Positions 4,344 through 42,974 of a stretch of 64,000 nucleotides of DNA are shown here, piece by piece. Under the pieces are notes generated by a model. It was given only the letters and a program-made list of their open reading frames with translations, was not told the origin of the DNA and ran no database searches. The stretch lies in the NCBI GenBank assembly GCA_949317995.1, contig OX439042.1:20997174-21061173 (forward strand), read 5' to 3'. The first letter of the stretch is position 1. Each line of letters starts with the position of its first letter. Source of the DNA: Acholoe squamosa. Taxonomy: Eukaryota; Annelida; Polychaeta; Phyllodocida; Polynoidae. The translations under genes and the position numbers were made by a program.

Positions 4344-4387
4344 CAGTACAATGATAAGCCCAACCACTAATTCTCCACCATCTGGGC

Positions 4388-13938: not shown

Positions 13939-15118
13939 TCATACAAAACAGTTTGGATAGACTTTTCTAACACTATTTTTGAATTTATACATATTGTCTA
14001 TAACTGTAAATTCTGGTTTTAACTGATTCCATCTTGTAATGGCTCTATAGAGAGCACTACGTAGAACAATTGTTTTTAAACTGTGTGGAACAGTCAGTCT
14101 CTTTCCTTGGTGATATCGTGTAGCTATATTCCTTCTATCAATAAAAATCATATTTTGGGCAAGTGTAAAACCATAAGACAGTAGGTGTAAATCTCTCCTA
14201 ACATATAGCTCTGTACAATTACTTCTTTCTTGTATTTGTTTGGTCGTCATAACAGGATTTTCCTCTAACTTTACCTTATATACCATCCTTAATGCTCTGT
14301 TCTGTAACATTTGTAGATCTCTGTTTTCCCCTCTGTAGTCCCTATCCCAAATAAAATCACAGTAGTCAAATATGGGTAATATCATAGATTTGAAAACAGT
14401 CAAAGAGGCATCTTCGTCAAGTAGAGCTCTCACTCTCCCCATTTGAAAAATCCTTTGTCTAATAGTTTGCATAGTGTTTTCCCTATGTTTTACAAATTTC
14501 ATCTCTGTATCCATTCTTAAGCCTAGGTAAACAAATTCATCCACTTTCTCAAGATTCATATTGTTCATAGTAAACCTAGTATTATCGTTAATGTTAGTGT
14601 TAAAAGACATCCATTTGGTTTTTTGTACATTGATTTTAAGAGAGTTATTTATGCACCATAATACTATTTTCTGAATAACTTGGTTCATTTTATATGGGGA
14701 GTCAACAGATACCACTGCATCATCCGCATATAACGTAATATTACAATCAACTGCCTTGGCTAGGGAATTAATATATATGGAAAACAGAACAGGACCCAAA
14801 ACTGATCCTTGAGGAACCCCATACGTGATGGGTTTCAAGGATGAGACGCTATCATTTGCCAATGTACATTGCGAACGTTCTGCTAGATAATTTTTGAAAA
14901 ATTTACATGTATTATAACTGAGACCTAAAGCCTGTAATTTTCTAAATAATTTAGGGTGTGAAACCGTGTCAAAAGCCTTTTTGAAATCAATATATAGACA
15001 ATAAGTTAGTTTATTAATTAAATAATTGTTGATAATTGTTGCAAGATGCTCAGTGATAGCCGTCTGCGTAGAATGTCCTTTTCTATAACCATGTTGGGTC
15101 GGGCATAATAAATTTTGA
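13939..15118 (-). pseudogene. ORF2 3' part: reverse transcriptase catalytic core and C-terminal domain
   Basis: In the second frame RT continues without a break: QHGYRKGHSTQTA, motif A in YIDFKKAFDTVSH (near 14,970-15,000), motif B in YGVPQGSVLGPVLFSIYIN and the catalytic ITLYADDAVV (near 14,715-14,735). The region after the thumb (FVYLGLRMD, then IFDYCDFIWD) is typical of Jockey/CR1-type elements. The frame begins where the upstream one fails, showing a single-nucleotide-type frameshift. Apart from this, no stop interrupts the core, so decay is modest. Confidence 0.88.
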
Positions 15119-16393
15119 TTTTAGCCTTTTACAGACGATTCTCTCAAGTAGTTTACCTGTTATAGGCAGTAAGCTAATGGGTCTAGGATCTTCAACATTC
15201 ATAGAGTTAGCCTTTTTAGGAAGGGGTATAACGGTAGCGATTTTCCAATCTTCAGGGAAGATAGCTGAAGTTAGACATCTATTATATAATGATCTGAAGA
15301 TATCAGGAATAGCAAACATGGAGTCCTTAATAATAAAAGATTTACAATGTGCAATTGCAGATGGTTTCTTTATATCAATTGCCTTAACTAGCTTAATAAA
15401 GTCTATATAGGACAGCTCAAACAGAAGATCAGTATTTTCTACTATAGTACCATATGGGGGGATTACATTTTCATTTCTGTCTCCGGGCGGGAGTGCATTT
15501 GCTAATTTTTCTCCAATACCGGTAAAGAAACTATTTATATATTCAGCACAACCTTCAGGAGGTATTACTAAGTTTGTTGTATTGTTTCTAAGTTTAATTA
15601 GAGAAGTACAGGTTCTGTTAGGTAATACCTTCTTAATTGCTTCCCAGTATTTTGCAGGGTCATCTTTCCTATGCTCTAATAAATTTGCCATTTCTTTTTT
15701 CTTATTATTAAAAATTTCTATTTGGACCCTGTGTTTGTAAAAATTTGCTATTCTCCAGTCATCTTCTTTCATAGCGTTCTTCGCTGTCCTATATAAACTA
15801 TCTCTAACCTTCATTAAATCCAATATATCCTCCGTCAGCCACAATGGGGTGTGCTCTGGTATAATAACCGTTCTAATAGGACACATAACATCTAGATAGT
15901 CCTTTATCACCTTTTGAATATTTCTCCATATATCATTTGGGTTTTCTAGTGTCAATGTTTCATCCCAGTTATAGTTGGCTAGAGTATTTTTTAGGGATAA
16001 GAAATCATAATTTCTGTATGATCTAGCTTTGACCCTTTTCTTTTTGATCTTATGTCTTTCACATTTAATTACTAAGTATATGGGAGTGTGGTCGGAAATG
16101 TGATAATCTAGTGTACCATAAGCCGAAGCATTATGAACATTAGTATAAATATGGTCTAGTAGTGTCCCTGATTTTGGACGAGTAACTATATTAATTAGTT
16201 GAAAAAGATTATTACCAGTGCAAAAATCATCAACAGAGGAGTCATTTACATCCTTTTTGTTAAGAAGGTTCACATTAAAATCGCCTATGATAATTAGTTT
16301 CCTATTCCTAGTAACAGTATCAATTAATTCACTAAGTTTGGTATATATTGCCTTAAGATTATTACTATCTGGCGGTCTATAACATACAAACAC
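15083..16393 (-). pseudogene. ORF2 5' part: endonuclease C-terminal half, linker and RT N-terminus
   Basis: This is a 436-codon frame. It shows the exonuclease-endonuclease-phosphatase motifs IIIGDFNVN (GDFN at residues 37-40), LLDHIYTN (about 78-85) and the catalytic YHISDHTPIY (SDH at 100-102). A basic linker follows, then RT motifs 0-1 (EDWKIATVIPLPKK and PRPISLLPITGKLLERIV near residues 380-420). The frame is open upstream of the listed Met for about 20 more codons, then meets a stop inside the tandem repeat. It stops at 15,083 in mid-RT because of a frame change between about 15,085 and 15,118. The protein cannot be functional as it stands. Confidence 0.85.
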
Positions 16394-16482: not shown

Positions 16483-17600
16483 TCCTGTAAGACTTTATGC
16501 AATGTCAGGGTTCATGTTTCAGTAAAATATTCTTAAACTGCGCAACCTAATATAGGGGGCAATTCCAGAATTGCGCAAAATCAGTGAGGGGCAATTCCGG
16601 AATTTTGCCATTTCCGATTTTGCGCATGACATATGCATAGCTAAGAATGATTTTATTTTGTTGCTTCATTCTACTTCATGCATTCCCGATTATTTGGGAA
16701 GCCACTGACGCACATGTCGTGTGCATTTATTCCATGGAAACCACGCGGGAGGCCAGCGAGCATGGCAATTCGCCTGCAGTCCGAGCGGGGGCGTTGCGGT
16801 CGAAGCATCTCCCAGAGTCCCTTGGGGATCTAGCACTTCCGTTGGGTCCTGCAGGGGCTGTGGGGAGACAGTGGAGGGGTGAGGGAGGGTAATGCGGGGG
16901 AGGTCAGCACCCATTACCCATCAGTCCAACCTGTCCCTGTATGTCCACATGAAGCTTTATTGGGGCTAGGGTTTGCCATAGTTTCCAATGAATTCCAGTA
17001 GCCTCTTAGTATAGATCTGGACGAAAACTGCCCTTATATGGAAGAGATATGTCGCTAAGGTTGTCCTCCATTTAAAAAAGCAATTCCACTCTAGACATTC
17101 CTATTAAACACAATTGCATATATCAAATCAGTTCTCCATTTGGATGCACATTTACTAAAAGAGGATCGGTTATTGCTCCTACCGTCAACCAATGCCAAAA
17201 CTAAATACAGGTATCTCGCCCACTCTCCTCCTGTGTGGGTGCAGTGATTTAGGACGACTCATATCTCTTATTGGAGTTGGCATCAAGACAACGTATTGCA
17301 CATTTATGACATCTGACCTTGGCCTACTGGGACAAGGTATTTGGGTTGTAGGGTTAAATAGACTGAGCAGGAGTAATTCTGTGTTTTCCCAATTTGATGT
17401 ATTACCCTATGGCCTAATTACAGCTGACAAGCCACCATACAGATTACCCGGGTCAATATGGTATCTGACCACTGAGCAGTAGAGTGGGGGGGGGGGGCTG
17501 TGATGACTGGGAAAAAGTTTCCAATTCCACATGGGTATACTGGCCAATCAGGAAACTATAAATCTTTTAGAACGAGGACATGTTATAGTAAATCTACACT
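16483..17600. other. Non-coding interval
   Basis: It contains a short imperfect duplication of GGCAATTCCGGAATT (near 16,558-16,605) and a GC-rich patch at about 16.74-16.9 kb. The ORFs there overlap on both strands without any recognisable domain, so I call no gene. Confidence 0.5.
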
Positions 17601-17830
17601 ATTGTAGAGGTTGGTGAAAACATTCTGAAGAAACCGGGACTCGAACCTGGGGCCCTCCAATTTTGAAGCGGCTGCTCTACCTCTGAGCTTCTTCCCCTGG
17701 CCTGACATTCTCTACCTTCCAACTACCCTGGATTGGTATGGTATACATAGGGGGAGTGCCACAATCAAGTGAACAGTCCCTCTTAAGGCTCTGCGTACCT
17801 GACAGGGGAACGAACTCCTACACTATTACG
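17600..17830 (-). repeat. tRNA-derived SINE-like unit, copy C
   Basis: On the minus strand, 17,697 to 17,627 forms a 71-nt tRNA-like cloverleaf. It has an A-box region AGCTCAGAGGTAGAGC, a B-box GGTTCGAGTCC and acceptor GGGGAAG facing TTTCTTC with several G-T pairs. Upstream on the same strand it shares TAGTTGGAAGGTAGAGAATG and the GTGTAGG...CCCC head with the two copies at 41.8-42.6 kb. The tRNA-like part lies at the downstream end of the unit, which is unusual for a SINE head. Confidence 0.65.
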
Positions 17831-22707: not shown

Positions 22708-22713
22708 CCCAAC
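22708..22713 (+). repeat. Left 6-bp target-site duplication CCCAAC
   Basis: CCCAAC directly abuts the first base of the left terminal inverted repeat. The identical hexamer abuts the other end at 33,887-33,892. Confidence 0.75.
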
Positions 22714-23150
22714 AGTAGTATATAGGGGCAAACTCAGTGCATAGGAACAGCTACTGAAATCGATTTGACCTACTTACGAACCAGAAGTGATCTTTTGACC
22801 CCAACTTTGCACATGCGCACAGATAGGTTGAATTCAAAATGGCAGACAGCGTAACGTTTGATTTACATTGTCAACGACTTTGCGCATGCACAGAGATAGG
22901 CTAAATCCAAAATTGCTGACAGATGATAGGGAGCGTTTATTACTAACAACAGCGGGGTGGGTAGGTAGGTAGGGTAGGTAGGTTTATATAAACTGTGCGC
23001 GTGTTAGATACATGCGCATGTTAAATACATGCATGTGTGCGGCCTTCCCCCACAAAATACTTAAGGGGTGCCGCCAACCCCATAGCATACCCTACCCTAC
23101 CCTACCTTACCTTACCCTACTATACTTTTACCTAACCTATTCTATCCAGT
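22714..23150 (+). repeat. Left terminal inverted repeat
   Basis: It matches the reverse complement of 33,462-33,886 from the first base. It contains two copies of an ACTTTGC(A/G)CATGC-type segment followed by GATAGG, then CAGCGGGGTGGG, GTAGG repeats, a TTTATATAAA-like box, CCCCCACAAAATACTTAAGG and CCTACC repeats. The left arm has roughly 30-40 extra bases with ATACATGC motifs near 23,005-23,040. Confidence 0.75.
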
Positions 23151-24522
23151 AACCAACATGTTTTTTTGTCCCCCTACATTATAACATTTTCCCACCGTAA
23201 CATTACAAAAATAAATGACACTATCAACATGTTCCAATTAACCTTTTACATGCTGCACCCTACTATAGCATGCATACCCTTATCATGAAATTTCCCCCTA
23301 CCACCACCACAACCACCACCACCGTGCACCCATTGCTGCTCACTGGTTCGTGGATTAATAACAAACAATTTATGTAGGGTAGGGTATGGGGTGAGGGACA
23401 CCCCAGTAACGATGCATGCAATGACTGACACCGCCTATTAATAGGGACAACATGGAGAATAAAAAAAGGTTAATATAGACGTAATACACTCAAGCATGAA
23501 CAGTTAGATGTCAAATGCAGAAATCGCTTGACAAGATTTCCCTTATTTTAGCAAAAATGTTACAAAAAATTTACAAATTTACCTAAATGTTACAAAAATT
23601 CTACTTTTTACTCACAAGATTTCACCCTAAAACACAGTTTTAACCTATGTATTTTCTTTCACATCCATCCTTTGGTTGTTGTGTCCTATATGTGACATTG
23701 TGTTACACTTTTTGGATGATTATACCGTGTTCCTGGTAAAGTAGGTGTATAAATAATTATTAATCCTAATGTGAGTGAGCAGTGTAGAAGCCTACAGATT
23801 TAACTTTTGCTAAATTTTTGAAGGAATTTTCACCAATGTACAGTGAAGTAGTTTAAAAAGTAGATGTGCACAAATAAACTTCCAAAGTGTTGTATGTTGT
23901 ATCCTTGATGTTAAATCCTGGATTAAGTACAAGGTAGTAGTAGATACAGTATATGGACGGTCAGAGAGCTTGTGGTGTAGAGTGGAGAGTCAGTAATGAG
24001 AAGAGCTCGGTGTGTAGAGTGGAGAGTCAGTGTGAGAAGAGCTTCCAGGAAATGACACGCTTTGATTAAATGCAGGCTCGGTCATGTGGTAAACAAAACC
24101 CACGTGACTGGTCATGCCACAAAGAATGTGTATAGTGGAGCATTACTAGGATCACCAAGAGATTTGATTGCATTCAGTGTGTGGAAGTGTGGGTAGTTGA
24201 GACGACCACAGGAAGGCACCACTAGGTAGTCTGATATCTTCAACCTGCTGAGGAGCTTTGAATTAAGTGGGAATTAGTAGAGAGTGGGAGAAAAGAATTA
24301 AAGGTTATATCTAAACGACCTTTGGTGAAATGGACACCAGAACATGTTAACCTTGAATGAAAAAATCTCTATAAAATCCTGGTGCCAACGATCTAAGTGA
24401 CAGCACAGTCGATAAGTAACCAGCAGATTGAGACATTGAGATAAAAATATTATATGTTAATGCTGATTCTAATAGTAAAGAGGTAATAACTATCCTGAAA
24501 GGGGTTAGCTGTATATGTGAGC
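23151..24522. other. Non-coding left interior of the TIR element
   Basis: No ORF of note. 23,170-23,217 (CCTACATTATAACATTTTCC...) resembles, in direct orientation, 33,419-33,465 just inside the other TIR. A tandem duplication of GTGTAGAGTGGAGAGTCAGT lies at about 23,975-24,040. A TGGTGCCAACGATC string near 24,380 resembles a retroviral primer-binding region, but there is no LTR to support this. Confidence 0.45.
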
Positions 24523-24804
24523 ATGGAAGTCAGACACAAGTATAGGAGGACCAAAGCCTCCAATGGCACCAGATGGCTATGGGGGAAATTCAGAACCATC
24601 ACATGCATCATATGGTTTCTGCTGTGGCCGTGTCCTAGTAGGACAGCAGACATGGGTTTTGATATTAAGGATATGATTGCTTTAGGGGTAGTAATGAAGC
24701 CAGGGAGAATTATGAGTATAGCAGATTCGGATCATGTGTCCCAAGAGTTTGTATTAGAACTAAACCAAAAATGTTGTCCCCCCACAAAGTGCCAGCATGT
24801 ATAA
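24523..24804 (+). CDS. N-terminal fragment of a secreted or type I membrane glycoprotein-like protein (envelope/F-like)
   Basis: From the ATG at 24,523 the frame runs 93 codons. A basic N-terminus is followed by a hydrophobic, Trp/Leu-rich segment at about residues 27-42, ending in a plausible signal-peptidase site (PSRTA). A polar ectodomain-like stretch ending in a CCPPTKC cluster follows. Downstream DNA up to the Penelope-like insertion, and again beyond it, continues to resemble an ectodomain in shifting frames, and a membrane anchor appears at 32.5 kb. The overall plan (signal peptide, ectodomain, single C-terminal anchor, basic tail) fits the errantivirus Env/baculovirus F family of entry proteins. 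The sequence match is only impressionistic, and any type I membrane protein could look like this. As it stands the gene is broken. Confidence 0.4.
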   Translation: MEVRHKYRRTKASNGTRWLWGKFRTITCIIWFLLWPCPSRTADMGFDIKDMIALGVVMKPGRIMSIADSDHVSQEFVLELNQKCCPPTKCQHV

Positions 24805-25476
24805 TGAATGCATATGAATAATTAACGCCGTAACTAAGCAATTTAATACTTTAGTTGTATACCCCAGCCGGGATATGCGAGATGATAAAACTTAATGAAG
24901 AATGATTGGACCTGGCTAACCAGGAAATGATAAGGGTACGGCAGACAATCTTGCATGACACACTAGAGTTGATACCGGTCAAAAACAAGACTATTAGATC
25001 AGAGAGAGCGGGAATTCCAGTAAGTAATGTGTTCTCAGAATTCAGATGTAGAGGAAGTTGGAGAAAAAAATTAACATCATGAAGGGGACACAGAGGAAAA
25101 TTTATAAAATGCTGAGAGAGCTCGCCACAAAGGGGGATGAAAATTTCAGCAAAGTGCAGATTGAGTGGGATAAAGCCCTACAACAACAGTATTGTTCACA
25201 GCACAGGCGGAAATATTAAAATTTCAGGGGTTTCTAAAAGACTGTATCAATCAGAACACTGACGCCTTATTCAACATGTCTATCTTTCAGTCACATATCA
25301 ATGGCGTGTTAAGAACCAAACTGGATATGCCCTCCACTTTTTACTTTTACTTTTTCCTTTTTCACTTTTTTTACTTTTTTTTTTCATGAACAAGATACAA
25401 AGAACAGCTAAACTGGTCAGGGAAATAAGAGAAGCTATTAAACACAAAATTTCACCAAGACTTATCTCACCAAAAG
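24805..25476 (+). pseudogene. Degraded ectodomain portion of the envelope-like gene, left of the Penelope-like insertion
   Basis: The plus strand has coding-like stretches in more than one frame, with stops and frameshifts between them. The last stretch ends in a basic, helix-prone segment (TAKLVREIREAIKHKIS) directly at the insertion point. A low-complexity T-rich tract at 25,335-25,385 (ACTTTTT repeats) interrupts it. No intact reading frame exists. That it belongs to the same gene is inferred from strand, position and the anchor-bearing remainder further right. Confidence 0.4.
25461..25476 (+). repeat. Left target-site duplication of the Penelope-like element
   Basis: CTTATCTCACCAAAAG here and CTTATCCACCAAAAG at 30,698-30,712 differ by one base and flank the element exactly. 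PLE target duplications are known to vary in length at about this size. Confidence 0.75.
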
Positions 25477-25491
25477 ATTTTTTTTTTTTTT

Positions 25492-25536
25492 TTTGTGGGT
25501 TATGACCTGTCCGCATCGTGCGGACAGGTCATAACC
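25492..25536. repeat. 21-bp-arm perfect palindrome at the PLE 5' end
   Basis: GTGGGTTATGACCTGTCCGCA, three bases (TCG), then its exact complement. The right arm is the beginning of the first terminal repeat and the left arm is its inverted extension after a T tract. Inverted 5' tails of this kind are known from PLE insertions. Confidence 0.75.
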
Positions 25537-25728
25537 CACCTAGCCCTTGTTGAAAAGATCTATTATTTCACCAGTGAGCTGACCGTTAAAGTGCACCATT
25601 ACATCTTTCAACCATTGTACGCATCGTGCGGACAGGTCATAACCCACCTAGCCCTTGTCGAAAAGATCTATTATTTCACCAGTGAGCTGACCGTTAAAGT
25701 GCACCATTACATCTTTCAACCATTGTAC
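25513..25728 (+). repeat. Two tandem 108-bp terminal repeats (pLTR) of the PLE
   Basis: Units 25,513-25,620 and 25,621-25,728 both begin GCATCGTGCGGACAGGTCAT and end ACCATTGTAC, differing at about one position. The first 47 bp recur at 30,651-30,697, at the 3' end. PLEs are known to insert as partial tandems, which gives this pattern. Confidence 0.85.
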
Positions 25729-25766
25729 AACCTTTGTACATCACTCACCACTAACCCTTGGCGAAG

Positions 25767-27026
25767 ATGGCGAGTAAATCCCCCGAAAAACCGAAAGAAA
25801 ACCCGGACGACGCAGCGTCGACTTCAAACGGCGCGCCAGCGAACGGCAGCATGGCGAACCAACCAACGCCCGCAGTAAGTAGTTTTTTGTTCTCTCGATC
25901 TCAAAATCGAGAAAATTTAGTGTCATCAAAGTCTATCAATGATGGCAATACACCTTTTATGTCTCCAGTTAATAGTCAGACAGATCTATTTATCAGTCAG
26001 TCCATTAATCTGGAGGGCGTCTCACAGAGCGCTACGCACATCCGCTCAGACATGAGGCCGCCCAGGAGTAACGCTAGTCAGCCAATTGTTATAAGTTCGG
26101 GCCATGAATCCCAACCTAACAAACGTAAAAAGACAGATATATCATCTCCAGATATCTCTACTGCTGAATTACTGGGAGTGGATAATGCTGACAACCTGAA
26201 AGAAATTCACAATTTCCTTCAGGAAATCAACACAAATCCAAACCTAGCGACTAATGTTTACAACCTCATAAAAGTTGCAATGAATTCCAATACCGGTAAC
26301 AATGACACTTTGTCATCTAATATCGTTACAGAAACCTTGAAAGTGGCAACTGATGGAATAAAACGCTCTGTTTCTTTCCATCAGGATACCAATCAAGAAA
26401 AACCCAGCGCTCCCAAACCGGTCTCTACGAGAATCGAACTCTCCAAGGCTGAAGAAGAGACATGGATGCTTGCTAAATCCCATAGTATCCGAGGCCACAA
26501 AGCACACCAACGCGCCATGTGGCTGGAGGAACTCGAGGGTGACCAACTCATCACAGGCTGGGCTTTAGGAAATGAAGATTTACCGATGTATGTATCTTCC
26601 AGTGAGAGAGCCATGGACGCTCTAGCTCGCTCACGCCGAGCAAGTTGTTTTACTCACCAGAAAGCCGTAGCAGAGGCTCTTCATGCCGATGCTGAGCAAG
26701 AGATTGATGAAGGCAATAAGCACTCCAGAAACCTCTCCAATATGGTGAGCTCATCTCAGAAAATGGAAAAAATCAAGGAGAAAACCGACCGCTTCCTTAT
26801 GACAGAAAGCAGGAAGTTGGCTACCAAGATGGCTTCCACCCGCCTGAGACTGAACAACACAAAACAACCCCTGTCAGTCTTTAAAGACATCACTACTCAT
26901 TATAATAGTTGTAGGAAGGTTGTGGGCTCTAAGGACGAAGACAGTGATGAGACTACTGAAACTCTCACCGCTGCCGACTTCCCACCCATCACTGCCCCAG
27001 AGCAACGTGAAAAACAAGAACAATAA
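25767..27026 (+). CDS. PLE ORF1 protein, function unknown
   Basis: It starts at the ATG 25,767 (an in-frame TTG lies three codons upstream) and runs 419 codons. The N-terminus is Ser/Pro/Asn-rich and disordered-looking. Residues about 220-340 are helix-prone and charged (EEETWMLAKSHSIRGHKAHQ and ASCFTHQKAVAEALHADA), suggesting a structured core. I do not recognise a domain. Its stop at 27,024-27,026 falls in an A-rich run (GAAAAACAAGAACAATAAC). The +1 frame continues with a Lys/Gln-rich tail to 27,360, so this copy has probably lost a base there. Position and strand make it the ORF1 of the PLE, possibly an RNA-binding partner of the RT. Confidence 0.6.
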   Translation: MASKSPEKPKENPDDAASTSNGAPANGSMANQPTPAVSSFLFSRSQNRENLVSSKSINDGNTPFMSPVNSQTDLFISQSINLEGVSQSATHIRSDMRPPRSNASQPIVISSGHESQPNKRKKTDISSPDISTAELLGVDNADNLKEIHNFLQEINTNPNLATNVYNLIKVAMNSNTGNNDTLSSNIVTETLKVATDGIKRSVSFHQDTNQEKPSAPKPVSTRIELSKAEEETWMLAKSHSIRGHKAHQRAMWLEELEGDQLITGWALGNEDLPMYVSSSERAMDALARSRRASCFTHQKAVAEALHADAEQEIDEGNKHSRNLSNMVSSSQKMEKIKEKTDRFLMTESRKLATKMASTRLRLNNTKQPLSVFKDITTHYNSCRKVVGSKDEDSDETTETLTAADFPPITAPEQREKQEQ

Positions 27027-27360
27027 CAAAAAGTACCCTTCTGATCAAGGTAAAAAGAGGGCCCGCTCAGCGTCCACCAACACTGAAGTTAGGAAAAAGA
27101 AGACGGCCCCACCCACCAATGAGTCTAAACCCAAAGGTGGAAATAAGCAAAAGCAACAACCCCAGAAGAAACAGCCTAAACAGGCTTTTCCCAAACCCTC
27201 AACCTCAACAGAGACCTCGTCCCCGTCGAGCAACGAGGGTTGGCAACCTTCAAAAGCGTCCAAAAAGGCGTTGAAGAAGAATCTGAACACCAAACTCACC
27301 CCAGAACAAACCATGACCTTGATGAAGTCCCTAGAGTACATCAAGTCACTGAATCTCTGA
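26990..27360 (+). CDS. Basic C-terminal continuation of PLE ORF1 in the +1 frame
   Basis: The +1 frame past the end of ORF1 encodes about 110 residues very rich in Lys, Gln and Pro (KKRARSASTNTEVRKKKTAP, GGNKQKQQPQKKQPKQ), ending NLNTKLTPEQTMTLMKSLEY and a stop at 27,360. The composition fits a nucleic-acid-binding tail. It most likely was one protein with ORF1 and is now separated by a frameshift at about 26,995-27,020. A programmed +1 shift cannot be excluded. Confidence 0.5.
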
Positions 27361-27413
27361 AGACTTTTGCCCTTGTTAAACCGTCACATCTTGACAGTAA
27401 TTCTACACAAGTT

Positions 27414-30020
27414 ATGTCCTTTGACTTTGACACTGTTACCCTTGTTCAAACTAACCATACAAATGACACTTTGGCCCTGGAGCCTACAAATGTTACAGTT
27501 ATCACAAATTTGAACAATTCTAGCAATAATCAAAACATCTACGAAGACCTGAACTTCGATAAATGTAAGAATGATTCAGTATATTTGGAACATACTTTCA
27601 AAAATAAAATAATCATTCCTTTTGTTGACCCGCCCTCGTCATTAGTCAATCTTTCAAATTATGACCTATCTCCTACTGAACTTTCTGTTCTAGAGAGAGG
27701 ACTAAATTTCTGTCCCACCCCTGGAGAACCGCACTCGGGCGATCTCCGGAGGGAAATTGATAGATTTCACAGGAATCTCAGAATCAAATCCTTTTTTGAT
27801 CCAGATAGAGCTAGACCTGAGAAAAAAGCACAAGCCAACAGTACCACTAATGACCCAGTATCTGATACCCATGTTATTAGTAATGACCAGTCTATCAATG
27901 ACCCTCAACCCCCCAGTGGTTCATATGAACCCTGTCTGGAGAGAACCTTAACTGATACGGAAAAGATTCTCTCCAGTTCAAAGGTTATAAAGAATGACCG
28001 AAGTTGGAAGCCTCCTTTAGGCCCTACAACTCTGGAAACCTTTATTAACACCAACGAGGCTGACCTCAATAAAGTCATATCTAGGGCTCCGAGAGTCCGA
28101 AATTTGACTCTAGATGAAAAGAACTCTCTACGAGAACTATCTAGAAATCATTCCATTGTAGTAAAAAAAGCGGACAAAGGCGGCTCCATTGTCATCATGA
28201 ACCGCAATGATTACGTCATGGAAGGACAGCGACAACTGAAGGACGGTAAGTTCTATAAAGAAACTACTGTTGATTTAACCAAAGACCATTGTCACAAAAT
28301 TAATTTCAGTGTCAACTTACTAAGAAGAAAGGGAGAAATCAGCGAGCAACTTGAACGGAAACTCCTCACTAGTAAACCGAGAACACCCTGTTTGTATCTT
28401 CTACCGAAGATACACAAAGGTAAGTACCCACCGCCTGGAAGACCAATTGTCTCTGCAAATGGTTCTCCAATGGAAAAAATATCAGCCTTTGTTGATGCCT
28501 ATTTGAAACCGATGGTTCCAAAAATAAGATCCTACCTCAGAGATACCAGACACTTGCTTCTTATATTTAAGAAACTGGGACAAATACCAAGTGGATCTCG
28601 GATTGGCACTTTGGATGTAACCTCGTTATATACCAATATTCCAAACCGTGAAGGCCACATGGCAGTAGGTAGATTTCTTATCAAACACAGGAGGGTGAAT
28701 CCAAATGAACCCTCCAATGAAAGCCTATGCCATCTATTATGGCAAGTGCTAACCATGAATAATTTCAAATTTAATGGTAAACATTACCTACAAATCGCTG
28801 GCACAGCCATGGGCACTAGAGTTGCCCCAACCTATGCCAACATATTCATGGGGGACTTTGAAGAAAAACACGTCTATACGTATCGACTACAACCTTTTTT
28901 GTGGCTTCGATTCATAGATGATGTATTCTTCATCTGGACCCATGGAGAAAACGAGTATGAGAAATTTCTACACCATCTGAACACGGTCCATCAGACAATA
29001 AAGTTCACTGGTGAAATTTCTGATAAGTCTATAAACTTCCTTGATACCACAGTGACTCTCACTGCGGGAAACATAGAAACAGACTTATATGTGAAACCAA
29101 CAGACTCCAACAACTACCTCAGGTATGATTCCTCACACCCCAGACACTGTGTAAGGGGCATACCGTACGGACAGTTTCTACGGATACGGAGAATCTGCTC
29201 TAAAGACGAGAACTTCATACGCCATAGTATAATGAAGGGCCGTCACTTCATACGACGCGGGTACGACCCCTGCTTCATACTATCTGCCTTCCTAAGAGCT
29301 TGGGCTACAACAAGGGAATCTCTCCTTGTAGACAAGCCCAAACCTCAGAAAGACCAAACACCCCATATATTGGTGACTACTTACTCACCAGGCAGTGACT
29401 GCCTAAGTAAGATTGTACAAACCAACTGGGATCTCCTAGTGAAATCGTACCACACAAGGAACATTCACAAAAAGGGCTTCATGACTGTTCATAAGAGACC
29501 CAAAAACATTGGAGACCATGTAGTAAGAGCTAGACTCCCCAAACTCCCTGATGAGAACAGGATTCCTAGGGTAAATACCTGCAAAACTAAAGGTTGTGGG
29601 TACTGTACCAGAATGAACTACAGTGGCAAGATCACGTGCCCCACTACTGGTCGCACGTACTCAGCCAAGAACAATGTTTGCTGTAAAAGTTCCAATTTGA
29701 TCTACAGCCTTTCCTGCAAGCGGTGTGGGAAAATGTATGTGGGTCAAACAAAGGGACCGTTGATGGATCGTATCCGCACACATTACAGAAACATACGGAA
29801 TAATGTTGTAACAAGCATTGTTGGATCTCATTTCAACACTAATTTCCATAAACAGCTAGATGATGTGGAGTTAACCATAGTTGACTTCATACATGCTCAC
29901 CCTGATAGTGACAAAGCTGGCTACCTACGGAACCTAGTTGAATTCAATTGGATTCAAAGGCTCCATTCCAATGCACCTCAAGGGTTGAATATAGCAGATG
30001 CCCCCTTTGGAGCTGGCTAA
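27414..30020 (+). CDS. PLE reverse transcriptase with C-terminal GIY-YIG endonuclease
   Basis: This is an 868-codon ORF from the ATG at 27,414; the frame is open to 27,240 without an ATG. The N-terminal 200 residues are unassigned. The RT shows KKADKGGSIVIMNRNDY, LYLLPKIHKG with GRPIVS, motif A TLDVTSLYTNIP (Asp at about residue 401), motif B AGTAMGTRVAPTYANIFMG and the catalytic FIDD (Asp 502 and 503). FLDTTVTL and the PLE-typical GIPYGQFLRIRRICS follow. A Cys cluster (CKTKGCGYC from about residue 723) precedes the GIY-YIG nuclease: IYSLSCKRCGKMYVGQT (about 763-779), then DRIRTHYRNI and GSHFN. GIY-YIG makes the target nick and RT copies the RNA. No stop interrupts it, so the enzyme could be intact. 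The RT order and the GIY-YIG fusion are diagnostic of endonuclease-positive Penelope-like elements. Confidence 0.93.
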   Translation: MSFDFDTVTLVQTNHTNDTLALEPTNVTVITNLNNSSNNQNIYEDLNFDKCKNDSVYLEHTFKNKIIIPFVDPPSSLVNLSNYDLSPTELSVLERGLNFCPTPGEPHSGDLRREIDRFHRNLRIKSFFDPDRARPEKKAQANSTTNDPVSDTHVISNDQSINDPQPPSGSYEPCLERTLTDTEKILSSSKVIKNDRSWKPPLGPTTLETFINTNEADLNKVISRAPRVRNLTLDEKNSLRELSRNHSIVVKKADKGGSIVIMNRNDYVMEGQRQLKDGKFYKETTVDLTKDHCHKINFSVNLLRRKGEISEQLERKLLTSKPRTPCLYLLPKIHKGKYPPPGRPIVSANGSPMEKISAFVDAYLKPMVPKIRSYLRDTRHLLLIFKKLGQIPSGSRIGTLDVTSLYTNIPNREGHMAVGRFLIKHRRVNPNEPSNESLCHLLWQVLTMNNFKFNGKHYLQIAGTAMGTRVAPTYANIFMGDFEEKHVYTYRLQPFLWLRFIDDVFFIWTHGENEYEKFLHHLNTVHQTIKFTGEISDKSINFLDTTVTLTAGNIETDLYVKPTDSNNYLRYDSSHPRHCVRGIPYGQFLRIRRICSKDENFIRHSIMKGRHFIRRGYDPCFILSAFLRAWATTRESLLVDKPKPQKDQTPHILVTTYSPGSDCLSKIVQTNWDLLVKSYHTRNIHKKGFMTVHKRPKNIGDHVVRARLPKLPDENRIPRVNTCKTKGCGYCTRMNYSGKITCPTTGRTYSAKNNVCCKSSNLIYSLSCKRCGKMYVGQTKGPLMDRIRTHYRNIRNNVVTSIVGSHFNTNFHKQLDDVELTIVDFIHAHPDSDKAGYLRNLVEFNWIQRLHSNAPQGLNIADAPFGAG

Positions 30021-30650
30021 ATAGAGGTTAAGAGGAATTCTGGGAGAGTCCACTGTTTGGACAAACCCCACTTGAGCCCAAAATAGCCTCGCATCCTTGG
30101 GATGCCCGACCTAGCCACGTCAAAAAAAAAATTTTAAATAAATCATCGGGCACCCCGAGTTGGCTAAAAGGTTTATAAATATACTCGTTCTTTCACTTTT
30201 GAAAGTCAGTATAAGAACACCTAAGTGGAGAGTCCTGTTTAACTTTTCCATGCCTGTTTGATATTTCTACCAAATATTATAGTAATTGACAGTAAAACTC
30301 TAATTTTATTGTCATTGGACCCGCAACCATAGTTACGGTGACCGAGTGAGGTTGCCAAGAAACTTTTTTCTCAACAACACCACAATAACACCAAATTCCT
30401 GTGAATTTGGGACCACTGGCAACATTTGCCACTATTTTGCACAATCAGATGCCTGATGAGTCCCCACTGGACGAAACTACTCTTTTTAGTGGAAATCCTG
30501 ATATTTTTACTAAGTTGCCATAACATCTATTAGATGTTGGCAACTGTTGTCAAGCTCACCTAGGTGATGATGACATCAGTGGCTGTTGCATGGCAATGGT
30601 GTTCTGAATGATGTCACAGGGTTTAACCCCAACCGTCATTTGGAGTGGTA
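30021..30650 (+). other. PLE 3' untranslated region
   Basis: Non-coding DNA between the RT stop and the terminal-repeat fragment. It contains GGATGCCCGA/TCGGGCACCC pairing around an A-rich tract near 30,100-30,160, an AATAAA in that tract, and the hammerhead-like motif listed separately. Confidence 0.6.
30444..30502 (+). ncRNA. Hammerhead-ribozyme-like motif in the PLE 3' UTR
   Basis: The conserved core is present in order: CTGATGA (30,453-30,459), stem II GTCC/GGAC with loop CCACT (30,460-30,472) and GAAA (30,473-30,476). A 5-bp stem III (CTACT/AGTGG, 30,477-30,492) follows, and a distal stem I (ATCAG at 30,444-30,448 with CTGAT at 30,498-30,502). PLEs are known to encode hammerhead ribozymes, which supports the call. 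The region after stem III reads AAATC rather than placing an NUH triplet directly at the junction, and stem I next to the core pairs poorly. This copy may therefore be inactive or may fold differently from my model. Confidence 0.55.
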
Positions 30651-30697
30651 GCATCGTGCGGACAGGTCATAACCCACCTAGCCCTTGTCGAAAAGAT
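30651..30697 (+). repeat. 3' fragment of the PLE terminal repeat
   Basis: This 47-bp stretch matches the first 47 bases of the 108-bp tandem unit at 25,513 and 25,621 and stops at the target duplication. The truncated tandem copy marks the 3' end of the PLE. Confidence 0.8.
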
Positions 30698-30712
30698 CTT
30701 ATCCACCAAAAG
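30698..30712 (+). repeat. Right target-site duplication of the Penelope-like element
   Basis: CTTATCCACCAAAAG; see the left copy at 25,461-25,476, which has one extra T. Confidence 0.75.
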
Positions 30713-31283
30713 CATTCAAAAGGTGGTGGAACAAGCAGCCCTAAGAATTACCACAAACACTCAGTGAACTTTATAGAGCCAGATTACTATTACGAGAATG
30801 TCGTAGTTACATGCTACCAGGAATAGAGGAAAAACATATTTAAAAGTGAATATCCCAGTGATGAATGGTGAACACATTTTCAGTGTATATCAGGTGGTGA
30901 CCCAGTACCAATTAGAATTAAGGGCAAACAGGTGGATGGCACCATGTTAGCGGGATTACCAAACGAAATTGCTATATCCAGGTCAGGGACATATTACATT
31001 GCCACACCAGTGGTCACATGGTCAGGCTACATTGGAAAAACAGTAGCAATTTTGTCCAAATGTGCCCTACATGTGAAAAGTGAGCAAAAAATCGTGTAAA
31101 GCTGCACTCATCAGGGATGATCTGTCAGCTATCCAGACACTATGTGACATACAATAAGGGTACGTCCCATTTTTCCGTCAATGGCAATGGGAGATAACAA
31201 GGTGTTAATCACAGGACCAGAAGTAGAGGGTCAATTCCAGTATAACCCTGTGGGTCGCAACCCCCACAAATCATCACCATCCA
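30713..31283 (+). pseudogene. Degraded ectodomain portion of the envelope-like gene, right of the PLE
   Basis: Coding-like stretches continue on the plus strand in at least two frames, with several stops. Short pieces carry features expected of an Env/F-type ectodomain: a short hydrophobic strand ending in Ile-Pro-Val followed by Tyr/Val-rich residues (near 30,850-30,900), then a segment with spaced Ser-Gly-Thr-Tyr-Tyr and a Cys (near 30,985-31,060). The similarity is to the family's general pattern and needs a profile search. The copy is clearly non-functional. It is cut at 31,284 by another insertion. Confidence 0.35.
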
Positions 31284-32108
31284 CTGGGTTAGCGATAAGC
31301 TACCTTTTCAATTAGCCAATTTGGCGAATTTTGATTGATTTTGATTAGCCAAATTCAGTGTCAATTAGCCAAATATATTCACTTTAAAATATACATTAGG
31401 TGGAGAAGATTAAGGGACAATGACTGCCTAACAAAAGCAGATCCAATATGTACGGAAATCTGGAATTTATTTTGTATTTCCAATGAAATGTATGTTGAAT
31501 GGGGGGTTTTGTTTAATAGAAAAAAAATCCCTTGTGACTCTGAAGCTAATCCTTACAAAATGCAAAATCTTTTTCTAAAACTATAGGGGCTCTAATTATA
31601 TGATGGAAGCATTATAGATATATCTAGACTTGCTCAAGTCTCTTAATTTTAATATAAAGGAATTGAAATTCTAGAAATTGAAATAAATTAAAGTTTAGAT
31701 GGAAAAAAAGTAAGAAGACCTCTAGTGAATCAGTAAGCGACTGCGCTGGGGGAGAAGGGGGAGGAGTGAGTGTGGTACTGAGTAGCAGTAGACTAGTAGC
31801 GTCTGTAGTAGATCCTAGAGACTAACACTAGTCTAATCATCTAAACTAACCCAAGTCTTTTGATTTTTATGTAAGGAACATGGGGACCAGCGCTAGTCTA
31901 GGATACACCATGTTACATTCCTCCTTGAATTTCCTTTCCAATGGTGTATTATATGGCTATATCCTTATAGGTGAATTAAGGCCTACAGCCTGTGCTTACA
32001 ACCCTCCATTGGGATTCGCCAATTTGGCGATTTTCCATGGAGTTTTATTAGCCAAAATTGCTTTTGATTCGCCATTAAGGATTTGGCGAATGGCTAGCGC
32101 AAACCCTG
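31284..32108. mobile_element. 825-bp inverted-repeat insertion (hAT-like ends) in the envelope-like gene
   Basis: The left end CTGGGTTAGCGATAAGC resembles the complement of the right end GGCTAGCGCAAACCCTG. Inside, several AATTTGGCGAAT/ATTCGCCAA and TTAGCCAAA/TTTGGCTAA segments are mirrored (31,310-31,380 against 32,010-32,100). No transposase ORF is seen. The flanking octamers (ACCATCCA and ATCCATCA) are similar but not identical, so the duplication size is undecided. The C(A/T)GGG start is hAT-like. Confidence 0.5.
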
Positions 32109-32625
32109 ATCCATCACTGCAGTGTAAAAGAAGTGGGGTGTGATTGTGCCTTTCTCACGGCGGGTTCCTGGATGACGTATAGTCTAAAAGGGTATGCTAA
32201 AAAGGTATTAAAAACCAAGGTCCATTTCTCAACAAATAAACTGTTGAAAATGGGAAAGTTAGATCAAGAATGGGTGGCAGCAAAGATTAATGCCAGGGAA
32301 GTGGCGACACTCAAACAAGTTTTAGCTTCCAGCTAACGTTAGAGACGTATTAGAGCAGAAGGCACTGGACACCAACAACACGGTGAAGGTGAAAATGGCA
32401 TTATAGTGTGCAGGGATGGAAGATGGTCTACTAACTTTAGAGGATAGGTTAGGACAGATTCAGCTGCCAGGACATAAACCACCCCAGTGCCCGTATGAGG
32501 GTAGCTCTAAGGACTCTACAATAACCGAGTTGGTCATTATAGTGGTAGTATTAATACTAGTAGCCATATACCTGATTAGGAAGGTTAGACAAATGAAGAG
32601 GAAAAAACTACTGGATGGAATATAA
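32109..32625 (+). pseudogene. C-terminal part of the envelope-like gene with transmembrane anchor and basic tail
   Basis: Two pieces are coding-like: 32,133-32,336 (about 67 codons) and 32,416-32,625. The latter (ATG at 32,416) encodes about 45 polar residues containing one Cys. A 20-residue Ile/Val/Leu-rich membrane span follows at about 32,527-32,580, then a strongly basic tail (RKVRQMKRKK) and TAA at 32,623-32,625. A single C-terminal span with a short basic tail is the expected end of a type I viral-type glycoprotein. The same frame reopens right after the stop. Confidence 0.45.
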
Positions 32626-32646
32626 TTGGACTTATCATCAGACTCT

Positions 32647-32925
32647 ATGAACGAAGTAATCCATTTGGACACCTGCAGCATCCCTGTCGACCATGTCTTT
32701 CAAAGGTCTATAGGGGAGCCACTGGTCAAGGAAGTGGTGGTATCAATAACATGCCGGGGGCACATGGCCCTAGTAATATGGGGGCGAACCCTATACTCGA
32801 CAAAATGTGGTTCGGGAGAACTGGCTATACCAGTGAGCCTACCAGACACTATCAAGGTATCCAGAACTACAGCTTGGGAGTTGGATAGGATAAATGGAGT
32901 GCTAATAGCCAGACTTCTTAAATAA
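32647..32925 (+). CDS. Small ORF directly behind the membrane anchor, unknown
   Basis: 93 codons from the ATG at 32,647. The frame is the same as that of the anchor-bearing ORF, and the two are separated by a single TAA (32,623-32,625) with no other stop, so the frame covers 32,416-32,925 apart from that codon. The product has two Cys and a beta-strand-like pattern (KEVVVSITCRGHMALVIWG, then KCGSGELAIPVSLPDTI). I do not recognise it. It could be an extended cytoplasmic tail of the glycoprotein before the stop arose, or an independent small gene. Compact spacing to the next ORF (5 bases) looks virus- or transposon-like. Confidence 0.4.
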   Translation: MNEVIHLDTCSIPVDHVFQRSIGEPLVKEVVVSITCRGHMALVIWGRTLYSTKCGSGELAIPVSLPDTIKVSRTTAWELDRINGVLIARLLK

Positions 32926-32930
32926 AGTCC

Positions 32931-33479
32931 ATGGATTTACTTAGAAAGCAAGACCTGGATTCTGAGCAGGTTTTGACTACACTCCTGCCTGCTAATGTAT
33001 CAGCCCTGGACATAACTTTAGGACAGCCAATGCTCCTCAAGTGTACACTGGGACAACTGGATAACAACCACTTCACTGAAGATACAAGTGGGATAACAAC
33101 CAGCCAGGGACCCACTGTGCCTGAAAATCTTTTTTTTTTTACCAAAGCTCAAGCAACCAGACAAATCAGGCATTACTAGGTGAGCAGCAGGACAATAGTG
33201 CCAAGGACATGTCCACCTAAGGACACATCACTTGGATTTACTGGCAGCAAAACAGTAAGTGTGCACAGGGTTACAGACAACCCTCTGGGGTTACATGAAC
33301 AAGTCACCAGTGGACAAAACAGCTTGAACAATGGAACCCATATAAACTCTCAAGCACAAACTAAAGTTTACACATCATCATATGCAAAATGGATTAGAAA
33401 AAAAGTGTTAACTTTTAGCACCTACATCATAACATTCTCCCACCACAATGTAAAAAATAAACAACCAAAGGTAAACTAG
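32931..33479 (+). CDS. Small ORF with one in-frame TAG, unknown
   Basis: It starts with ATG at 32,931, five bases after the previous stop. 82 codons lead to TAG at 33,177-33,179; the same frame then continues 99 more codons to 33,479, ending inside the start of the right TIR region. A run of T (33,129-33,138) encodes consecutive Phe. The product is polar, Thr/Gln-rich and without a recognisable domain. The second half runs into DNA that resembles the left interior, so it may be open by chance. If real, the gene carries one nonsense mutation. Confidence 0.35.
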
Positions 33480-33886
33480 GCTAAAGTGGGTAGGTAGGTA
33501 GGTACGTAGATAGGTAGGTAAAATAGGGTAGGGTAAGGTAGGCTATGGGGTGGGGGGCACCCCTTAAGTATTTTGTGGGGGAAGGTGCATAACACATGCA
33601 CACCCTATATAAACCTACCTACCCTACCTACCTACCTACCCACCCCGCTGTTGTTAATAATAAATGCTCCCTACCATTTGTCTGCCATTTAAGATTTAGC
33701 CTATCTCTGCGCATGTGCAAAGTCGATGACAACGTAAGTCAAATGTTTTGCTGTCCGCCATTTTGAATTTAACTTATCTCTGTGCATGTGCAAAGTCAAG
33801 GTCTAAAGGTCACTTCCGGTTCGTAAGTAGATCAAATCGATTTCAGTAGCTGTTCCAATGTGCTGAGTTCGCCCATATATACTACT
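33462..33886 (-). repeat. Right terminal inverted repeat
   Basis: Reverse complement of 22,714-23,150, ending ...TATATACTACT at the target duplication. It holds GTAGG/CCTACC tandem repeats, CACCCCTTAAGTATTTTGTG, a TATATAAACC box, GCGCATGTGCAAAGTC and the CAAATCGATTTCAGTAGCTG end segment. Confidence 0.75.
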
Positions 33887-33892
33887 CCCAAC
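33887..33892 (+). repeat. Right 6-bp target-site duplication CCCAAC
   Basis: Identical to 22,708-22,713, directly abutting the terminal CT of the element. Confidence 0.75.
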
Positions 33893-40704: not shown

Positions 40705-41014
40705 TAATATATCATCCCATGGTGTCAGGCTGTACGTGAAATGTCAACTTTGAATATCAGCCCCAATCAATCAATTAAGACAATTTATACTTCACCTGGC
40801 TCTGCACCCCATTGTTCCTTCTTTAGGTTTATTTCCACATTCTACAGTTGGGGGCCAGCAGGAGCTTTTATGAATTAGGTCAGTTCTGGCAGGAGGTTTT
40901 GTGAATTGGGTCAGGTTTGGGAGGAGGTTTTGTGAAATAGGCCAAGTGTAGCAGGAGTCTTATGAATTAGGTCATTTTTAGGTTTAGGTCACAGCAGATG
41001 GAGTGGAAAATTTT

Positions 41015-41095
41015 GTCCCATATGGGATTCGTACCCATGCACCAGACAGTGCTGGGATCCAGAGTCCCATGTGCTAACCATTACACCATGAGTCC
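41015..41095 (-). tRNA. tRNA-Gln-like sequence with anticodon CTG, probably a pseudogene or SINE head
   Basis: The minus strand has TGGTGTAATGGTTAGCAC (D arm and A box as in tRNA-Gln), an anticodon stem TGGGA/TCCCA with loop CTCTGGA (anticodon CTG) and a T arm ATGGG TACGAAT CCCAT. Two features argue against a working gene: the acceptor strands do not pair well (GGACTCA against ATGGGAC), and an extra 4-bp hairpin (GCAC/GTGC) occupies the variable region. No SINE tail is obvious. Confidence 0.5.
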
Positions 41096-41819: not shown

Positions 41820-42060
41820 TGTAGGGGCAGTAATTCCCTTACCTGGTGGAGATACTGAGTGGTCCTGCCGCACAAGAGAGCTTGGTACCAGGTAATCACT
41901 GCCCCCTAGTGTGTGTATCATACCAATCCAGGTGTAGTTGGAAGGTAGAGAATGTCAGGCCAGGGGAAGTAGCTCAATGGAAGAGCTTCCGCTTCAAAGT
42001 TAGAGGGTCCCGGGTTCGAGTCCCGGTTTCTCTTTGACATTTTCCACTGACCACTACATT
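41820..42060 (+). repeat. tRNA-derived SINE-like unit, copy A
   Basis: The unit runs GTGTAGGGGCAGTAATTCCC to GACATTTTCCACTGACCAC. A 71-nt tRNA-like part (41,963-42,033) has GCTCAATGGAAGAGC, a B box GGTTCGAGTCC and acceptor GGGGAAG/TTTCTCT (with G-T pairs). Upstream, GGGGCAGTAATT...ACCTGG and CCAGGTAATCACTGCCCC form an inverted repeat. Confidence 0.7.
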
Positions 42061-42323
42061 GGTGGAGAAACCGAGCACCCTAACGCAATCACAGATTGAA
42101 GGTACGGGAACCCCGTATCTTAATGCAATCATTGATTGAGGACTCGGGAACTGGGCCGATATGATACAGATGACACTTCGACCAATCCAGTAATTGTACA
42201 GGTACATCCACTGGGAAGTCAGGAGTGCCCCAACACTGCTTGATAAAGCCTCAATTTCCAGGTAACTGGTTTGAAGGGGAATGCCGGGTGCTAGTGGATG
42301 GTTGTTGAAGCTGATGGGGGGGA
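42061..42323. other. Spacer between tandem SINE-like copies A and B
   Basis: Non-coding. It includes two related CTAACGCAATCACAGATTGA / TTAATGCAATCATTGATTGA segments about 45 bp apart. Confidence 0.5.
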
Positions 42324-42576
42324 GTGTAGGGGCAGTAATTCCCCGTACCTGGTGGAGATACCGAGTGGTCCCGCCGCACAAGAGGGATCTTTAGAGAGCT
42401 CGGTACCAGGTAATCACTGCCCCCTAGTGTGTGTATCATACCGATCCAGGTGTAGTTGGAAGGTAGAGAATGTCAGGCCAGGGGAAGTAGCTCAGGGGTA
42501 GAGCTTCCGCTTCGAAGTTGGAGGGTCCCGGGTTCGAGTCCTGGTTGCTCGATGACATTTTCCACTGACCACTACA
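42324..42576 (+). repeat. tRNA-derived SINE-like unit, copy B
   Basis: About 93-95% identical to copy A over its whole length, 504 bp downstream, with an extra GGATCTTTAGA in the head. The tRNA-like part (42,481-42,551) has a better D arm (GCTCAGGGGTAGAGC) but a weaker acceptor stem. Confidence 0.7.
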
Positions 42577-42974
42577 ATTATATAGACATTAATAAGACAT
42601 ATTCACTGTAATGCCTAATGTCAGGGCAACTTGCTATGATACTCTATGAGGATTGTTCATAAATGGTAAATTGGTGTGTATTTCTATTTTCTCAAGTCAT
42701 AGAACGATCCCTGGGAATCAATATGATCGTACCACTGTTTAAAGGGTAATACATAACTAGTATATCATATGAATACATTGAATTCTACATAAATAGGTGT
42801 CCGAATCTATCTTGCGACCCTTCACAACCCATATCCCAATATATGTTCTAGGTACAAGGAGGACTGAATAATCTTGAGGCAAACTGTTTTAATATACACA
42901 CCACCACTTCCCCCCCCCTCCCTCCTTCACCATTCCCCATACAGCACAAATTTTTGCTGTATGGTGAACCAACT

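What the first reader, a model, noticed from the sequence alone, without database searches (positions are those of the whole stretch)
22714..33886. Maverick/Polinton-type termini around an element carrying a broken envelope-like fusion glycoprotein gene
Seen: inverted repeats of about 425 bp, AG...CT ends and a perfect 6-bp duplication CCCAAC exactly at the homology break. The cargo includes a signal-peptide ORF, degraded ectodomain-like stretches and a single membrane anchor with a basic tail. Known: Maverick/Polinton elements have AG/CT ends, long TIRs and 6-bp duplications, and some have captured fusogen genes in nematodes. Inferred: this may be a Polinton-related, virus-like element of another animal lineage that took up an Env/F-type glycoprotein, later gutted by nested insertions.
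Basis: partly seen in the sequence, partly recalled or inferred. Interest (0 to 1): 0.88.

Follow-up and report, generated by a model that had tools for sequence, protein, structure and literature searches.

The report
Maverick-ended transposon carrying broken envelope-like gene
A worn-out piece of mobile DNA in a large genome, likely an animal's, has the end repeats and 6-base target duplication of virus-like Maverick transposons, yet no Maverick gene was found in it and it carries a broken gene, from a family common in that genome, that likely encodes the envelope protein of retrovirus-like elements.

Summary
Window 22714-33886 is bounded by about 0.4-kb inverted repeats ending AGTAGT...ACTACT with a perfect 6-bp duplication, the commonest published end motif of vertebrate Mavericks. 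It belongs to a family: 40 TIR matches scored of 1677 candidates; 7 of 19 places examined show such ends with perfect 6-bp duplications. Two later insertions (a Penelope-type retroelement and an 0.8-kb insert) split the cargo; two genome-mates lack both. The cargo gene belongs to a large family in this genome with many unbroken 920-961-codon frames, and is distantly related to a second family (frames around 906 codons), one copy of which lies beside a Ty3/gypsy-type integrase and another beside integrase plus reverse transcriptase. The envelope reading thus rests on homology and context, not on any Pfam or PDB match. No tested Maverick polymerase, integrase or capsid-type ORF of this genome matches the window element or 20 fetched family stretches, although the genome holds many unbroken Maverick polymerase frames. 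Most likely this is a non-autonomous Maverick-type element that took up a retroelement envelope gene and was moved in trans; the trans step and the direction of capture are inferred.

The parts
22708..22713 (.). Left copy of the 6-bp target-site duplication CCCAAC
   Evidence: Read directly; identical to 33887-33892
22714..23150 (+). Left terminal inverted repeat, beginning AGTAGT (Maverick-type end)
   Evidence: 40 matches scored of 1677 candidates in the genome; motif published for Mavericks (PMC8097293)
23151..24197 (.). Left internal region without clear coding signal; parts shared with many family-mates
24198..25475 (+). First part of the broken envelope-like gene region, with hydrophobic leader in 24499-24804
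   Evidence: Collinear with L014:2782-3952 at 82-85% DNA identity; hydropathy
25476..30699 (+). Nested Penelope-type retroelement (RT plus GIY-YIG ORF 27240-30020, 108-bp terminal repeats), inserted after the host element; boundaries approximate
   Evidence: RVT_1 E 3e-4 and GIY-YIG E 9e-4, both below the Pfam cut-off; 1193 proteins at E<=0.001; repeats; site empty in L010 and L014
30700..31283 (+). Middle part of the broken envelope-like gene
   Evidence: Piece 30872-31096 matches 150 scored places of 387 candidates, many in unbroken frames of 920-961 codons; collinear with L010 and L014
31284..32108 (.). Second nested insertion, about 0.8 kb, ends reminiscent of hAT by eye; boundaries approximate
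   Evidence: Absent from L010 and L014; both end portions recur about 0.9 kb apart in L028; weak terminal inverted similarity
32109..32625 (+). Late part of the broken envelope-like gene with membrane anchor and basic tail
   Evidence: Collinear with L010 and L014; hydropathy 3.1
32626..32925 (+). 99-codon open frame, probably the region after the membrane anchor of the same gene
   Evidence: Collinear with L014:4996-5446, where one open frame covers anchor and part of this region; weak same-order similarity to the C7 frame, E 1.6, not significant alone
32926..33480 (+). Right internal region with decayed open frames 32931-33179 and 33180-33479
   Evidence: Fewer stops than expected; shared with several family-mates; no Pfam match
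33481..33886 (-). Right terminal inverted repeat, ending ACTACT
33887..33892 (.). Right copy of the target-site duplication CCCAAC

Best explanation
This is a decayed mobile element with Maverick-type ends and a 6-bp target duplication, in which no Maverick gene was found and which carries a broken gene of a family likely to encode a retroelement envelope protein; it was likely moved in trans by enzymes of the Mavericks in the same genome. Shown: the ends, the duplication, a multi-copy family with the same ends and duplications, the two nested insertions and their empty sites in mates, unbroken relatives of the cargo gene elsewhere in the genome, and a homologous second gene family with a copy adjacent to a Ty3/gypsy-type integrase. 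Inferred: that the AGT-type ends are recognised by the integrase of the autonomous Mavericks (their own TIRs were not seen), that the gene was captured from a gypsy-type retroelement rather than the reverse, and that the protein is a membrane fusogen.
For: Ends and duplication. Perfect 6-bp duplications with AGTAGT/ACTACT ends at 7 of 19 places (window plus 18 places in 20 fetched stretches, several of which reach only one end): window, L011, L012, L014, L026, L016+L017 and L025; L010 has one mismatch. Published Maverick features: (AGT)2//(ACT)2 ends, 6-bp duplications, TIR mean 402 bp (PMC8097293, passages and section 7). Window-type cargo in 2 of 20 fetched stretches, L010 and L014, without the Penelope element and without the second insert. 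Window piece: 150 scored places of 387 candidates, with unbroken 920-921-codon frames at 65-70% and 947-961-codon frames at 47-49% identity. Second family: 150 scored of 4478 candidates with many unbroken frames around 906 codons; its frame pieces hit 13 of 20 fetched TIR stretches at E<=0.001, including the window-type gene in L014 (36.5%, E 3e-5); a looser re-run against window, L010 and L014 gives 40.4 bits, reached by 0 of 200 residue shuffles, maximum 29.6. rve plus SH3_Tf2-1 integrase beside the C7 copy; RT and integrase matches beside the L024 copy. Many unbroken PolB frames above 1400 codons in the genome.
Against: No fusogen profile and no significant solved structure matches any piece; one L024 piece has a fusion glycoprotein F0 as its only PDB row, at E 1.1, which is chance level. 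The N-terminal piece of the C7 frame has no relative at E<=1e-3 in the large protein search. Models of two pieces were too poor to use. The TIRs of the autonomous Mavericks were not found: 8 stretches beside 4 PolB genes show no match to the window TIR, and the PolB loci only a 33-base match at E 0.045, so a shared integrase is not shown. L024, the one TIR stretch that also has RT and integrase, may be a retroelement sitting next to or inside a TIR copy.
Confidence: 0.6

Rival explanations
1. Remnant of a full Maverick that carried its own envelope gene, as reported for nematode Mavericks, with the core genes since deleted.
For: Maverick ends; nematode Mavericks with a putative fusogen are reported (PMC10680173, one passage; the original study is recalled, not read); one mate keeps 11.5 kb between its TIRs.
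Against: PolB stretches and 12 other ORFs from this genome's Mavericks match none of 20 TIR stretches nor the window element. None of the 150 listed copies of the second env family, none of the first 40 of 150 rows of the window-type family and none of 40 TIR places lies within 30 kb of 71 PolB places; these lists are capped.
Confidence: 0.2
2. A chimeric element in which a gypsy-type pol-env unit itself lies between Maverick-type TIRs and moves through them; the window copy and most mates are deletion products.
For: L024 with L051 has a family TIR, then env, integrase and reverse transcriptase on one strand.
Against: Only L024 of the 20 stretches matched the C7 integrase; L024 leaves the shared TIR-flank sequence at about position 632 (visible rows), which fits an insertion; its right TIR was not seen.
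Confidence: 0.12
3. An unrelated DNA transposon family whose ends resemble Mavericks by chance, with a nested retroelement env fragment.
For: No transposase or integrase of the element's own was found to prove the class.
Against: Both ends, the 6-bp duplication and the TIR length all fit Mavericks; an env-containing core is shared by many mates.
Confidence: 0.08

Closest known systems
Maverick/Polinton elements of vertebrates (Barreat and Katzourakis 2021, PMC8097293)
   Same: (AGT)2//(ACT)2 ends, perfect 6-bp target duplication, TIR of about 0.4 kb
   Different: No PolB, integrase or capsid-type gene found; about 5.1 kb without the nested insertions (mates with both ends 2.5-11.5 kb) against 12.7-24.6 kb for the intact ones of that paper
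Nematode Mavericks with captured fusogens (Widen et al. 2023; seen only as a meeting-report passage, PMC10680173)
   Same: Maverick ends together with a putative fusogen gene
   Different: Here the gene's relatives include copies beside gypsy-type pol genes in the same genome, and the rest of the Maverick is missing
Env-bearing Ty3/gypsy retroelements (errantivirus-like; [quoted passage not shown]
   Same: The related 906-codon gene lies downstream of an rve/SH3_Tf2-1 integrase; hydrophobic leader and heptad-like stretches by eye
   Different: In the window the gene sits between Maverick-type inverted repeats with no pol; no Pfam envelope profile matches
Penelope-like elements with GIY-YIG
   Same: RT plus GIY-YIG ORF, tandem 108-bp terminal repeats
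   Different: It is a later passenger, not part of the host element

Membership tests
Maverick/Polinton | AG-type conserved ends with 6-bp target-site duplication | tested here: met
   AGTAGT...ACTACT and CCCAAC; 6 further places with perfect duplications
Maverick/Polinton | Long terminal inverted repeats | tested here: met
   About 400-435 bp, 80% identical
Maverick/Polinton | Protein-primed DNA polymerase B | tested here: not met
   tblastn with PolB frames from 10 stretches (9 places) of this genome against the window and 20 TIR stretches: none at E<=0.01
Maverick/Polinton | Retroviral-type integrase and capsid-type genes | tested here: not met
   tblastn with 12 ORFs from 6 of the 8 stretches fetched beside this genome's PolB genes: none at E<=0.001; 109 ORFs of mates against Pfam: only one match, RVT_1
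Maverick/Polinton | TIR shared with the autonomous Mavericks of the same genome | tested here: inconclusive
   No TIR match in 8 stretches beside 4 PolB genes, but their own ends were not identified
Ty3/gypsy-type envelope gene | Homology to a gene lying downstream of gypsy-type pol | tested here: met
   C7 gene beside rve/SH3_Tf2-1 integrase matches the window-type gene in L014; the window copy itself matches only weakly
Ty3/gypsy-type envelope gene | Match to a curated envelope or fusogen profile | tested here: not met
   Pieces against Pfam; the genome search with Baculo_F did not complete
Ty3/gypsy-type envelope gene | Membrane fusion activity | not tested
   No experiment
Penelope-like element (nested) | RT followed by GIY-YIG endonuclease, with tandem terminal repeats | tested here: met
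   (both domains below the Pfam cut-off)

The most novel reading that the evidence does not exclude
Maverick ends act here as a shuttle for retroviral envelope genes: a gypsy-type env (in L024 perhaps a whole pol-env unit) has been packed between Maverick TIRs at least twice, on opposite strands, and amplified without any Maverick gene, which would make such cassettes a standing exchange pool of entry proteins between retroelements and DNA virus-like transposons.
Probability: 0.2. Interest if true: 0.85.

Novelty: new variant of a known kind. Interest (0 to 1): 0.55.

Why it matters
Captured fusogens are a proposed route by which Mavericks cross species. If Maverick-ended elements without Maverick genes repeatedly carry retroelement envelope genes, envelope genes can pass between retroelements and DNA virus-like transposons inside one genome, and the direction can be tested, because this genome holds many unbroken frames of both gene families and many unbroken Maverick polymerase frames side by side.

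Tried and rejected
Pfam, PHROG and PDB searches of the window's pieces gave only chance-level matches or matches below the curated cut-off. Six scans of viral contigs, five with pieces and one with a TIR motif, gave nothing real; the single hit L001 is a phage-like contig whose frame shares one short word with the query. The 99-codon ORF and the C7 frame piece have no relatives in the large protein search. The TIR has no match in phage records. Models of two pieces had mean pLDDT 37 and 44 and were not searched. Rfam found nothing of use in the element. A hammerhead-like motif in the Penelope element is not backed by Rfam.

Papers: PMC8097293 passages and section 7 read; PMC6431247, PMC11071296, PMC10680173 and PMC2836005 passages only; all others seen as search listings. 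In nine searches of the paper library no listed title or abstract start describes a Maverick-ended element carrying a gypsy-type env; most subscription papers are not in that library.
Full report
The two arms of window 22714-33886 are inverted repeats of about 0.4 kb. They align at 350 identical columns of 439, gaps included, with a score of 239 against a maximum of 19 in 100 shuffles. Both arms begin AGTAGTATATA and are flanked by the same six bases, CCCAAC. Of 115 AGTAGT/ACTACT pairs at a plausible distance in the window, only this one has matching flanks. Barreat and Katzourakis (PMC8097293; passages and section 7) report (AGT)2//(ACT)2 as the commonest end of vertebrate Mavericks, with 6-bp duplications and TIRs averaging 402 bp.

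The element is one of a family. The window's genome (1.48 Gb, 63 contigs, unnamed) holds 1677 candidate TIR matches, of which 40 were scored, at 75-100% identity. I fetched 20 stretches at 18 places around these. Of 19 places, window included, 7 have AGTAGT/ACTACT ends with a perfect 6-bp duplication: window, L011, L012, L014 and L026, the C4 element in L016 and L017, and a 2.5-kb element in L025. L010 has one mismatch. In the others I saw one end only, a cut end or no matching flank; many stretches were cut so that they reach one end. The two TIRs of one element differ by 8-18% (Jukes-Cantor over the aligned block, six elements), 13% for the window copy, so the family is old. The Penelope passenger's terminal repeats differ at 2 of 113 sites, so it came later.

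Two insertions split the window copy. The larger, about 25476-30699, is a Penelope-type retroelement with an RT and a GIY-YIG domain, both matched below the Pfam cut-off, and 1193 related proteins. The smaller is about 31284-32108. L010 and L014 carry the same cargo as the window and run straight across both sites. Without the insertions the window element is about 5.1 kb.

No Maverick gene was found in the family sample. The ORFs of the window element that I scanned, on both strands, gave no Pfam match to a polymerase, integrase or capsid outside the Penelope element. Of 109 ORFs from mates only one matched anything at E<=0.01, a reverse transcriptase in L028; L019 holds a gypsy-type gag and RT, likely nested. 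The genome itself has many unbroken Maverick polymerase frames: 71 places scored of 871 candidates, frames up to 1582 codons. PolB frames from 10 stretches (9 places) found nothing by tblastn at E<=0.01 in the 20 stretches or the window, while they found each other. Twelve other ORFs from 6 of 8 stretches beside PolB genes, including an integrase end with a chromodomain (Pfam Chromo) and capsid-like ORFs named by neighbourhood and recall, also found nothing at E<=0.001. No TIR match was seen in the 8 stretches, and only a 33-base match at E 0.045 in the PolB loci. The ends of those Mavericks were not identified, so I cannot say whether the TIRs are shared.

The cargo gene is a member of a large family. 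The piece 30872-31096 matched 150 scored places of 387 candidates. The closest are decayed, including L010 and L014; then come copies at 60-70% identity, four of them in unbroken frames of 920-921 codons, and a large group at 47-50%, many in frames of 947-961 codons. Eight of the first 40 rows are in frames of at least 900 codons. Separately, many other mates (L011, L012, L015, L016, L019, L021, L022, L026, L027, L028) share a different core (visible rows; that output was cut) with pieces of a second, related gene; in L011, oriented by the flank it shares with the window, this gene is on the opposite strand. A piece of that type from L024 matched 150 scored places of 4478 candidates, many in frames around 906 codons.

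One copy of the second type, on C7, was examined in two pieces that were not joined. It lies beside an integrase with rve and SH3_Tf2-1 domains, the Ty3/gypsy kind. L024 has integrase and reverse-transcriptase matches beside its copy on the same strand. The C7 pieces match 13 of 20 TIR stretches at E up to 0.001; the misses are L010, L017, L018, L020, L023, L025 and L029. Among the matches is the window-type gene in L014 (36.5%, E 3e-5). A looser re-run gives 40.4 bits and 0 of 200 residue shuffles reach it. L010 matches in the same place at E 0.002, and the window itself only at chance level. This ties the window-type gene to the gypsy-associated family through its closest mates. By eye the C7 piece has a leader, a basic site followed by a glycine-rich hydrophobic stretch, and long heptad-like runs, as in class I fusogens of the baculovirus F and errantivirus type; that likeness is recalled. 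No profile, solved structure or sequence in the large protein set confirms it; a fusion glycoprotein F0 is the only PDB row for one L024 piece, at E 1.1. The genome search with the Baculo_F profile did not complete.

None of the 150 listed second-family places and none of the 40 TIR places lies within 30 kb of the 71 PolB places, and none of the first 40 of 150 window-type rows does. One later row (C3:18939126) is about 49 kb from a PolB place. Within these capped lists the gene families do not appear to travel in the PolB-bearing Mavericks. Two TIR places lie within 8 kb of a listed second-family copy: L024 itself, and C9, where the orientation of the TIR puts the gene outside the element. 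Three window-type rows lie between TIR places: the window, L010 and L014.

The best reading is therefore a non-autonomous Maverick-type element that took up a retroelement envelope gene, likely twice (window-type on one strand, the other type on the opposite strand), and was likely spread by the integration machinery of the genome's Mavericks. The ends, duplications, family, nested insertions and gene relationships are shown. The trans mobilisation, direction of capture and fusion function are inferred. The main weak points are the missing TIRs of the autonomous Mavericks, the unread neighbourhood of the 920-961-codon copies, and the unresolved status of L024.

Noticed in passing
25476-30699: Nested Penelope-type element with a 926-codon open RT plus GIY-YIG frame, a preceding 422-codon ORF without a domain, 108-bp terminal repeats 98% alike and an inverted hairpin at its left end (25495-25539). 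Closest proteins found are 54% identical.
   Followed up: partly
30453-30477: Hammerhead-like core motif in the 3' region of the Penelope-type element, found by pattern; Rfam does not list it at E up to 5.
   Followed up: partly
G000, 71 scored places: Many unbroken Maverick polymerase frames in several classes, some copies 99% alike, a sign of recently active Mavericks in this genome.
   Followed up: partly
L012 and L013: On C17 two successive TIR copies share 0.9 kb at 97.7% and the same 6-bp flank CTCCTG, a local tandem duplication.
   Followed up: no
L049:1052-2344 and L049:4380-5671: A 1.3-kb block repeated at 99.6% beside the C7 gene copy; the integrase stretch recurs in L052 at 99%.
   Followed up: partly
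L019:5443-8975: A gypsy-type gag and reverse transcriptase, likely nested, within a TIR-family stretch.
   Followed up: no
13939-16393: LINE-type remnant with endonuclease (Exo_endo_phos_2, E 1e-7) and an RT-like frame (by eye) on the minus strand.
   Followed up: no
1452-4367: 971-codon open frame on the minus strand, gag-like by eye, without a Pfam match above the cut-off.
   Followed up: partly
17626-17697, 41014-41094, 41963-42034, 42481-42552: Four tRNA matches, three of them inside repeats that match each other (17593-17758, 41897-42068, 42415-42586), probably tRNA-derived SINEs.
   Followed up: no
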